Shown: one piece after another, positions 19,526 through 21,905 of the stretch
How the letters are laid out: every line of letters starts with the position of its first letter
Position numbering within the stretch: the stretch's first letter is position 1
From: Planctomycetota bacterium
Lineage (GTDB): Bacteria > Planctomycetota > UBA1135 > GCA-002686595
Length of the DNA stretch: 64,000 bases
Direction: 5' to 3'
NCBI GenBank assembly: GCA_016795205.1
Contig: JAEUHZ010000069.1
Coordinates: 1-64,000 of the forward strand
Translations under genes and position numbers: made by a program
The notes under the pieces: generated by a model
The model's input: only the letters and a program-made list of their open reading frames with translations
The model's database searches: none
What the model was told of the DNA's origin: nothing

Positions 19526-19567
19526 TTCCTACCAGGACGGGGGCCTCGATCCAGCCTCCGGACTGGC

Positions 19568-19573
19568 TAGAAT
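19568..19573 (+). promoter_or_regulatory. -10-like TAGAAT before the AbiEii-like module
   Basis: TAGAAT ends ten bases before the CTG codon at 19583, and TG lies two bases upstream of it. Transcription would start at about 19580, nearly at the first possible codon of the small frame, so its mRNA may be (almost) leaderless. Confidence 0.4.
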
Positions 19574-19582
19574 CGAGGCACC

Positions 19583-19822
19583 CTGCAGGCACACGACACG
19601 ACGAGCCCGCCCCCCGGCTACGAGCTCCAGTCGCCGGACTCGTCGTACTGGGCCGAGGCACTCCAGTTCCGCCGCTGGCGCTCCATGGATTTCGAAGCCA
19701 AAGCACGGCTAGCCGAGGACTGGCACCGCGCCGTGCACGAGCTGCAGATCGAAGCCCTGCGCCGCTCCCATCCTGGCGCGAACGAGCGCGAGCTCGAGCG
19801 CCTTGCGGCTGAAGCGCGCTAA
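19583..19822 (+). CDS. Small helical protein preceding an AbiEii-like nucleotidyltransferase (possible antitoxin or partner)
   Basis: The frame ending at TAA 19822 reads 'GYELQSPDSSYWAEALQFRRWRSMDFEAKARLAEDWHRAVHELQIEALRRSHPGANERELERLAAEAR'. The part 'AKARLAEDWHRAVHELQIEALRRSHPGANERELERLAAE' matches the short helical protein, pattern 'LRRxHPxAxExEIxR', that regularly stands just before DUF6036/AbiEii-type nucleotidyltransferase genes. In-frame stop TAG is at 19568, so the protein can only start at a non-ATG codon (CTG 19583 gives 79 aa) or at the ATG 19685 (45 aa); homologues I remember include residues before that ATG, favouring the longer version. Likely partner of the next gene, 50 bp downstream. 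Role as antitoxin is inference. Confidence 0.6.
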   Translation: MQAHDTTSPPPGYELQSPDSSYWAEALQFRRWRSMDFEAKARLAEDWHRAVHELQIEALRRSHPGANERELERLAAEAR

Positions 19823-19864
19823 GGGCGCGAGTTCCTGGCTGGCTTTCTCGTGAGCGGACGATCC

Positions 19865-19888
19865 GGAACATCGTGAGGACGATGTTCC
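19865..19888 (+). promoter_or_regulatory. Hairpin over the ribosome-binding site and start of the nucleotidyltransferase
   Basis: Perfect inverted repeat: arm GGAACATCGT (19865-19874), loop GAGG (19875-19878), arm ACGATGTTCC (19879-19888). The loop is a Shine-Dalgarno-like GAGG, and the ATG at 19882-19884 lies in the right arm. In RNA this would hide the start codon; in DNA it is a good operator palindrome. Either would autoregulate the gene. Confidence 0.65.
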
Positions 19889-20457
19889 AGGCCGCGCTCG
19901 ATGCGGCCGCGCTGTTCGAACGACTGGGCGTGCCCTACGTGCTCGTGGGCGGCTTGGCGACCATCGTGTATGGCGAGCCGCGCTCGACCCTGGACGTCGA
20001 CTTCGCCGTGCACATGAACGCCGAGCAGGCGCGGCGCCTGCCCGCGCTCGCGACACCGCAGTTCCTGGTCCAAGGGGAGTCGGCGCTCGAGGCCACGGCG
20101 CAGCACTCGCAGTTCAGCCTGGTCCATGCCGAGAGCTACGTGAAGGTCGACGTGCACGTGGTTCCGAGGAGCGGGATCCGCCAACTCGAGATCCAGCGCG
20201 GTCGTTGGCAGCGCCTGGGTCCGGGTCATCCCGACGAGATTCGCATCGCCACGCCCGAGGACGTCCTGCTGCAGAAGCGGCGCTGGTTCGCGGACGCCGA
20301 CGAGACCTCACAGAAGCAGTGGCGCGCTGTGCTGGGCATCCTCAAGGCGCGTGGCCACTCCTTGGATTCTGCGTACTTGCGAATCTGGGCGCGGGACCTG
20401 GGGATCGGCTCCGTGCTCGAACGCGCGGTCATCGCGGCCGGGCTGGGTGGCGCCTGA
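19873..20457 (+). CDS. AbiEii/DUF6036-type nucleotidyltransferase (191-194 aa)
   Basis: The N-terminus has the minimal nucleotidyltransferase core: 'YVLVGGLATIVYGEPRSTLDVDFAV', that is GG-x-A followed by D-x-D (DVD). The C-terminal part 'ATPEDVLLQKRRWFADADETSQKQWRAVLGILKARG...LDSAYLRIWARDLGI' is typical of the AbiEii/AbiGii toxin-like and DUF6036 families. Relatives act as toxins by adding nucleotides to tRNA or other targets; most members are untested. Two starts are possible: GTG 19873 and ATG 19882; I favour 19882 because GAGG in the hairpin loop precedes it, although the spacing is short. It follows a small helical partner gene by 50 bp, a toxin-antitoxin-like arrangement. Confidence 0.78.
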   Translation: MRTMFQAALDAAALFERLGVPYVLVGGLATIVYGEPRSTLDVDFAVHMNAEQARRLPALATPQFLVQGESALEATAQHSQFSLVHAESYVKVDVHVVPRSGIRQLEIQRGRWQRLGPGHPDEIRIATPEDVLLQKRRWFADADETSQKQWRAVLGILKARGHSLDSAYLRIWARDLGIGSVLERAVIAAGLGGA

Positions 20458-20669: not shown

Positions 20670-21905
20670 ATGCGAACCCTGACCGCTCTCGCCTGCGCCG
20701 CGGCGTGCGCCGCTGCGGCGGCCTGTGCCACGTCCGCGCCTGCCCCGGGTTCGACGCGCCTCGACCCTTCCAAGCAGCAGGTCGTGCTCTCCGAACGTGC
20801 CGGCTGGCGTGCCGACCTCGTCCACGACCAGGGCGACGTCGGCATCTGGACCGTCAAGGCCTTCGACCTGTTCCCGCAGTACGGCACCCCCGAGCTCGTG
20901 AGCCTGGACGACCGGGGCCGCGCGCTGATCCATGTCTCCTACAGCGGCAAGTGGACGACCACCACGCTGCAGGCCGACGGCGCCTGGCTCGGCGGGCTCG
21001 ACCTCGGCGACGTCGACCCGCGCGTGACGGGTCGCGAGCTCTACACGGGCGGGAAGAGCGGGAACGTGTACGAGATCGTGCCCTACCCAGACGGCGGCTT
21101 GGACCAGCGGCGCATCGCCAACCTGGGCCGGCGCGAGGTCCACACGCTGGTCGTGGCCGACGTGCTGCCGCGCGCGGGCCTGGAGCTGTTGGCGTTCACG
21201 AGTCCCGGCGGGCTGTACGTCCTGGCGCCGCGGACGGACGGGCTCGACGGCTTCGAGACGCTGCTCCACGAGGAGCTCGGCGGGCGCGTGCGCGATGCGC
21301 TGCTCTTGCCCGTGATCGCAGGCGCTGCGCCGGAGATCGCCACGGTCAGTCGTGCCGGCGCGCTCGAGATCCTGAGCTTCCCGGGCGAAGAGCCGCGCTG
21401 GACGCGCGTGCACTCCCTCGCACAGGGACGCGGGCGGCTGGCACTCGCACCGGGCTCGACGCCTGCGCGCTGCGTGCTCTACACGACGGCCGACGACGGC
21501 ACGATCTGGCGCCACGAGCGTGCAGCCGGCCTGTGGCACGACGAGCTCGTGTACGCCGGCCCGCCGGGACCGCGCGGCCTCGCCGCGGGTCGGTTCGCAG
21601 CCGACCCGGCGCTCGAGACGCTGGTCGTGTGCGGCTACGGCGCGGAGGTCGAGCTCCTGACGCGCGGCCCCGACGGCTGGACCGTCGAGACGATCTTCGT
21701 CGACCGCGACCAGGGCCATTGGATCACGACCTGCGAGGTCGATGGCCGCAATGGCACCGACGAGATCGCCCTGTCCGGCTACGGCGGACGCGTCGTGCTC
21801 CTGTCGCGGGCCGCCGGTTTCGGGCTCGGCCACGCGCTGGCGCGCCCCGGCCCGGCGGAGCGCGCCGTCGCGTCTCCCGCCGCGCCGCAGGGCGCGCAGC
21901 GCTGA
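20670..21905 (+). CDS. Lipoprotein with beta-propeller-like repeats, unknown function (411 aa)
   Basis: The N-terminus MRTLTALACAAACAAAAACATS is a signal with a likely lipidated Cys at 19. The body shows repeated stretches such as 'LVSLDDRGRALIHVSY', 'GLDLGDVDPRVTGRELYTGGKSGNVYEI', 'LVVADVLPRAGLELLAFTSPGGLYVL' and 'TTCEVDGRNGTDEIALSGYGGRVVLLSR', which look like degenerate FG-GAP/VCBS propeller blades (D-x-D/N-G-x-x-E-L pattern). No enzyme motif is visible. It stands between the nucleotidyltransferase module and the convergent S9 peptidase gene; 18 bp separate the two stops. An outer-face binding or sensing role is only a guess. Confidence 0.65.
   Translation: MRTLTALACAAACAAAAACATSAPAPGSTRLDPSKQQVVLSERAGWRADLVHDQGDVGIWTVKAFDLFPQYGTPELVSLDDRGRALIHVSYSGKWTTTTLQADGAWLGGLDLGDVDPRVTGRELYTGGKSGNVYEIVPYPDGGLDQRRIANLGRREVHTLVVADVLPRAGLELLAFTSPGGLYVLAPRTDGLDGFETLLHEELGGRVRDALLLPVIAGAAPEIATVSRAGALEILSFPGEEPRWTRVHSLAQGRGRLALAPGSTPARCVLYTTADDGTIWRHERAAGLWHDELVYAGPPGPRGLAAGRFAADPALETLVVCGYGAEVELLTRGPDGWTVETIFVDRDQGHWITTCEVDGRNGTDEIALSGYGGRVVLLSRAAGFGLGHALARPGPAERAVASPAAPQGAQR

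What the first reader, a model, noticed from the sequence alone, without database searches (positions are those of the whole stretch)
19583..20457. AbiEii-like nucleotidyltransferase with a perfect hairpin over its start and a non-ATG partner gene
A perfect 10-bp inverted repeat (19865-19888) places the Shine-Dalgarno-like GAGG exactly in a 4-base loop and the ATG in the stem. This could hide the start in mRNA, or be an operator. In front lies a small helical protein whose longest form needs a non-ATG start (CTG 19583) about 3 bases after the predicted transcription start. Together they look like a tightly self-regulated toxin/partner unit with unusual translation control.
Basis: partly seen in the sequence, partly recalled or inferred. 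Interest (0 to 1): 0.66.

Follow-up and report, generated by a model that had tools for sequence, protein, structure and literature searches.

The report
A decaying MenAT1-like toxin-antitoxin pair
This planctomycete locus carries a worn-out copy of a toxin-antitoxin pair distantly related to MenAT1 of Mycobacterium tuberculosis: the toxin enzyme has lost a catalytic residue, the antitoxin gene is damaged at both ends, and the striking hairpin at the toxin start is most likely coincidence.

Summary
The 10-bp perfect inverted repeat with a GAGG loop (19865-19888) is real and overlaps the nucleotidyltransferase (NTase) start. It is not more than chance for this window (4 such repeats, 3.0 expected), is unique in the genome and absent from relatives. 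The partner frame has no ATG/GTG/TTG start, as reported.

The pair is a distant MenAT1-type toxin-antitoxin module. The NTase model matches MenT1 first in the PDB, the partner model matches MenA1 first, and the partner family hits Pfam "Rv0078B-related antitoxin". The pairing holds at over 100 loci in many phyla; the two are fused in cyanobacteria.

This copy looks decayed. Its NTase has Ala where 103 of 103 relatives have Asp, the position of MenT1 D152, whose Ala mutant is non-toxic. The partner aligns with its family past its TAA (19820-19822), a premature stop; read through, it ends at TGA 19874-19876, overlapping the NTase's GTG start as GTGA. The sister species keeps an intact partner at this site but no NTase. 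Across the order, 33 of 33 near-complete NTases have a partner, while about 23 partner loci lack an intact NTase. Self-regulation with unusual translation control is not supported.

The parts
19583..19822 (+). Damaged MenA1-like partner (antitoxin) frame: possible CTG start, no ATG/GTG/TTG, ends at a premature TAA
19820..19822 (+). Premature stop TAA, in the column where relatives have Tyr, Leu, Ile or similar before a conserved Gly
   Evidence: the sister G001 reads CTC here
19823..19876 (+). Remainder of the ancestral partner frame (GREFLAGFLVSGRSGTS, TGA), ending in a GTGA overlap with the NTase
   Evidence: profile without the window gives 53.4 bits to the stop, 60.5 with this tail, 0 of 200 shuffled tails as good
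19873..20457 (+). MenT1-like nucleotidyltransferase, GTG 19873 (or ATG 19882) start
19993..20001 (+). Kept DxD metal-binding pair (DVD) of the NTase
20275..20280 (+). Kept catalytic Lys (20275-20277) followed by Arg where 101 of 103 relatives have Leu
20326..20328 (+). GCT (Ala) where 103 of 103 relatives have Asp; equivalent to MenT1 D152
   Evidence: D152A effect in PMC10435456 and PMC11375011
19865..19888 (.). Perfect 10-bp inverted repeat with GAGG loop over the NTase start; probably incidental

Best explanation
A MenAT1-type toxin-antitoxin module in decay. Ancestrally a small helical MenA1-like antitoxin was translated first and ended in a GTGA overlap with a MenT1-like NTase toxin; the antitoxin bound the NTase and kept it inactive (inferred from MenAT1). 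In this genome the toxin has lost the Asp equivalent to MenT1 D152 and is probably inactive, and the antitoxin has lost its standard start and gained a premature stop. In the sister species the toxin is gone and the antitoxin remains alone. The hairpin over the toxin start is most likely incidental. Shown by sequence: family, pairing, Asp loss, stop, sister locus. Inferred: loss of activity, order of events, and that the ancestor was a toxin.
For: MenT1-like: profile E=5e-8; the top five Foldseek hits are MenT1. MenA1-like partner: PF18993 in 20 of 51 members, best 7e-5; top Foldseek hit 8an5_C, prob 0.98. Ala at a column with Asp in 103 of 103 relatives; MenT1 D152A is non-toxic and inactive. 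Homology continues past the TAA to a GTGA overlap typical of the family. The only locus examined without a standard partner start. Sister G001 has an intact orphan partner at the syntenic site. Partner dN/dS 0.75 against 0.19 and 0.36 in flanks. In the order 33 of 33 near-complete NTases have a partner, about 23 partner loci lack an intact NTase.
Against: The NTase frame is intact, other active-site residues are kept, and its third-position G+C is still high (0.88). The D152 equivalence rests on spacing and motif; a profile alignment over that stretch did not recover MenT1. MenA1 residues 1-32 suffice for neutralisation when overexpressed, so the truncated partner may still bind. Each of the two key changes is one base in a metagenome-type assembly.
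Confidence: 0.74

Rival explanations
1. One reading: a functional, tightly self-regulated toxin/partner unit. The hairpin hides the toxin start in mRNA or is an operator, and the partner starts at CTG.
For: The hairpin is perfect and sits on the start, about -15 kcal/mol alone. GAGG lies 4 nt before CTG 19583. MenA1 tolerates C-terminal truncation.
Against: Hairpin at chance level, absent from 83 relatives, unique in the genome. The partner has homology past its stop. The catalytic Asp is missing. MenA1 has no DNA-binding domain (PMC10435456).
Confidence: 0.07
2. A retained pseudoenzyme: the Asp-less NTase still binds nucleotide and/or the partner and is kept for a regulatory or decoy role.
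For: The frame is intact; the Thr, DxD and Lys of the active site are kept. MenT1 D152A still binds NTPs with MenA1 and still autophosphorylates (PMC11375011).
Against: No second genome with this change was found. The partner shows relaxed constraint and damage at both ends. The sister species has lost the NTase.
Confidence: 0.09
3. Sequencing or assembly errors: the gene pair is intact in the organism, and TAA and GCT are consensus mistakes.
For: Each change is a single base; the genome is an 84-contig draft, 90% complete.
Against: Two independent errors at functionally critical codons plus a missing start would be needed. Damaged NTases are common in related genomes, so damage is expected biology here.
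Confidence: 0.1

Closest known systems
MenAT1 (Rv0078B-Rv0078A) of Mycobacterium tuberculosis, PDB 8AN4/8AN5
   Same: Antitoxin-first gene order; small helical partner (PF18993-related); NTase fold with Thr, DxD and Lys of the active site; best structural match for both proteins
   Different: Sequence identity about 20%; the family's partner has extra N- and C-terminal helices; this copy lacks the D152-equivalent Asp and has a damaged partner
AbiE (AbiEi-AbiEii) and MenAT3/4, COG5340-DUF1814 type
   Same: NTase superfamily (PF08843 weak match)
   Different: Partner is not a COG5340 protein with a DNA-binding domain; AbiEii below cut-off
Antibiotic nucleotidyltransferases ANT(2'')-Ia and LnuA
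   Same: Shared NTase core
   Different: Weaker structural match than MenT1; no conserved small helical partner in front (general knowledge)

Membership tests
MenAT1-type toxin-antitoxin | Toxin with the MenT NTase fold | tested here: met
MenAT1-type toxin-antitoxin | Small helical antitoxin related to Rv0078B, encoded directly upstream | tested here: met
   Met at family level; the window copy is damaged and by itself has no Pfam hit
MenAT1-type toxin-antitoxin | Catalytic residues equivalent to D41 (DxD), K137 and D152 | tested here: not met
   DxD and Lys present, D152 equivalent is Ala in the window; present in 103 of 103 relatives
MenAT1-type toxin-antitoxin | Toxic alone, neutralised by the partner; adds cytidines to tRNA 3' ends | not testable with these tools
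   Needs expression and tRNA assays
AbiE (AbiEi-AbiEii) | AbiEii/PF08843 above curated cut-off | tested here: not met
   17.4 bits against 22.5
AbiE (AbiEi-AbiEii) | AbiEi-type antitoxin with DNA-binding domain | tested here: not met
   Partner matches Rv0078B-related antitoxin; no AbiEi model hit
RNA or DNA regulatory hairpin | More frequent than chance and kept in relatives | tested here: not met
   note that the nearest NTase relatives share only about 46% identity
Translationally coupled operon | Stop of gene 1 overlaps start of gene 2 | tested here: inconclusive
   GTGA overlap exists only in the read-through frame; as it stands TAA lies 50 nt before the GTG

The most novel reading that the evidence does not exclude
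The family is a large, largely unannotated branch of MenAT1-like systems whose antitoxin often outlives the toxin and in cyanobacteria is fused to it, so the small protein has a role of its own; the window's Asp-to-Ala NTase would be a natural 'dead toxin' kept as a partner-binding or nucleotide-binding pseudoenzyme.
Probability: 0.12. Interest if true: 0.6.

Novelty: new member of a known kind. Interest (0 to 1): 0.38.

Why it matters
It links a widespread, largely unannotated gene pair (Planctomycetota, Chloroflexota, Cyanobacteria, Verrucomicrobia, Spirochaetes and others) to MenAT1; the MenAT1 paper found only 21 menA1 homologues (PMC10435456). It also shows the module in decay, with toxin activity or gene lost while the antitoxin persists. 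Single-chain cyanobacterial fusions make it testable whether the partner is a releasable antitoxin or a permanent subunit.

Tried and rejected
Hairpin as conserved RNA element or operator: rejected. AbiE proper: rejected by cut-off and partner type. PADLOC: weak AbiEii match (E=7e-4, 17 bits), nothing useful for the partner. NCBIfam: nothing. Single-sequence scan of genome contigs found no relative; the alignment scan worked. Recoding of TAA rather than damage: unlikely, because damaged partners in relatives carry TAA, TAG or TGA. Profile alignment of the C-terminal half to MenT1 to confirm the D152 column failed, so that mapping rests on spacing and motif. The promoter-side inverted repeat 19539-19583 is not kept in the sister. 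One dN/dS line ('partner core') used a wrong frame and is ignored.

Full report
OBSERVATION. The repeat 19865-19888 is exact: two 10-nt arms, loop GAGG. The NTase frame can start at GTG 19873, inside the repeat, or at ATG 19882, in the 3' arm. The partner frame 19583-19822 has no ATG/GTG/TTG before its conserved part. The hairpin is not exceptional: 4 perfect stems of 10 bp or more with loops 3-8 in the window, 3.0 expected; z-score -1.5 for the 101-nt region. It is the only exact copy in the genome. Of 84 unfused loci only the window has such a stem at this place.

WHAT THE GENES ARE. The window lies in a 4.6-Mb draft genome; records of relatives in the same family and order are titled Planctomycetota. 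Relatives of the NTase were collected from the order and from GTDB genomes, giving 105 non-redundant pairs. In nearly all unfused cases a protein of about 75-105 aa lies directly upstream, its stop overlapping or within a few bases of the NTase start. NTase profiles match MenT1 of M. tuberculosis (8an4, E=5e-8; 9e-7 with the larger alignment, where 5uvd is first). The AlphaFold2 model (pLDDT 94) has MenT1 chains as its five best PDB matches. The partner family matches Pfam PF18993 Rv0078B-related antitoxin in 20 of 51 members (best 7e-5). The partner model (TAA read as Tyr) has MenA1 (8an5_C) as its best PDB match (prob 0.98, rmsd 1.2 over 41 columns; E 0.52, weak because the chain is short). 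By sequence profile against the PDB the MenA1 link is only suggestive (E=0.45). With the gene order this places the family beside MenAT1, where MenA1 binds across two MenT1 protomers and blocks tRNA modification (PMC10435456) and induces MenT1 autophosphorylation (PMC11375011).

WHY THIS COPY LOOKS BROKEN. First, in the QWR[D]V motif 103 of 103 relatives have Asp and the window has Ala (20326-20328); next to the catalytic Lys it has Arg where 101 of 103 have Leu. The Asp corresponds to MenT1 D152: the Lys-Asp spacing of 15 in L014 equals K137-D152, and the MenT1 fragment SDLRALV fits once the one-residue numbering offset seen at T39 is allowed for. This mapping is an inference; a direct profile alignment of that stretch failed. 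D152A is non-toxic in vivo and inactive on RNA. Second, the partner's homology runs past its TAA: a profile built without the window gives 53.4 bits up to the stop and 60.5 with the read-through tail, and none of 200 shuffled tails reaches that. The read-through frame ends at TGA 19874-19876, overlapping GTG 19873 as GTGA; the NTase domain then begins 14 nt later, inside the family range. Third, the window is the only locus examined with no standard start codon for the partner.

NEIGHBOURS. In the same-genus genome G001 the flanking genes are syntenic (84% DNA identity over the glycosyltransferase gene), but between them lies a partner gene with an intact C-terminus and a possible GTG start, and no NTase; homology resumes at window 21882. 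Partner dN/dS against the sister is 0.75, against 0.19 and 0.36 for the flanking genes. In the order all 33 NTases matching at E below 1e-49 have a partner beside them (one, in G065, shortened and fused). By contrast about 23 partner loci lack an intact NTase: 15 have no NTase match nearby and 8 have only a fragment, an internal deletion or a broken frame. Some of those partners are damaged too, and draft contigs limit the count. This asymmetry fits a toxin that is lost while its antitoxin is present. It is an argument, not proof.

MECHANISM AND STATUS. Most likely an ancestral antitoxin-first, translationally coupled MenAT1-like module, now with an inactive toxin and a fraying antitoxin. The truncated partner keeps the stretch that matches MenA1's helices, and MenA1 1-32 suffices to neutralise when overexpressed, so residual binding is possible. 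Inactivity, order of events and the ancestral toxin role are inferred. The hairpin now covers the start of a gene whose coupling stop has moved 54 nt upstream and could lower its translation, but nothing shows selection for that.

NOVELTY. A degenerate new member of a known kind. The wider family, with its cyanobacterial fusions (21 of 21 cyanobacterial loci), has only weak matches in Pfam, NCBIfam and PADLOC and is the more interesting lead.

Noticed in passing
L024, L029, L030, L033, L034, L036, L038, L039, L048, L049, L053, L055, L060, L062, L069, L072, L085, L087, L088, L094, L095: All 21 cyanobacterial loci encode partner and NTase as a single polypeptide, a fused toxin-antitoxin whose release mechanism is unclear.
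   Followed up: partly
L169 (G025) and L185 (G063); also L162 (G082): L169 and L185 carry the same in-frame internal NTase deletion (model 28 to 139), removing the DxD pair but keeping the partner intact; L162 has a similar internal deletion.
   Followed up: partly
L171, L172, L174, L177, L178, L180, L181, L184, L186: Orphan partners with open frames and no NTase match nearby, on contigs with room around them; their role alone is unknown.
   Followed up: partly
window 19539-19550 / 19572-19583: Inverted repeat with 11 of 12 pairs flanking TAGAAT in the divergent intergenic region; the right arm is not kept in sister G001.
   Followed up: partly
window 20670-21905: A lipoprotein-like gene beside the NTase is absent from the syntenic region of the sister species, lost or gained together with the NTase segment.
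   Followed up: no
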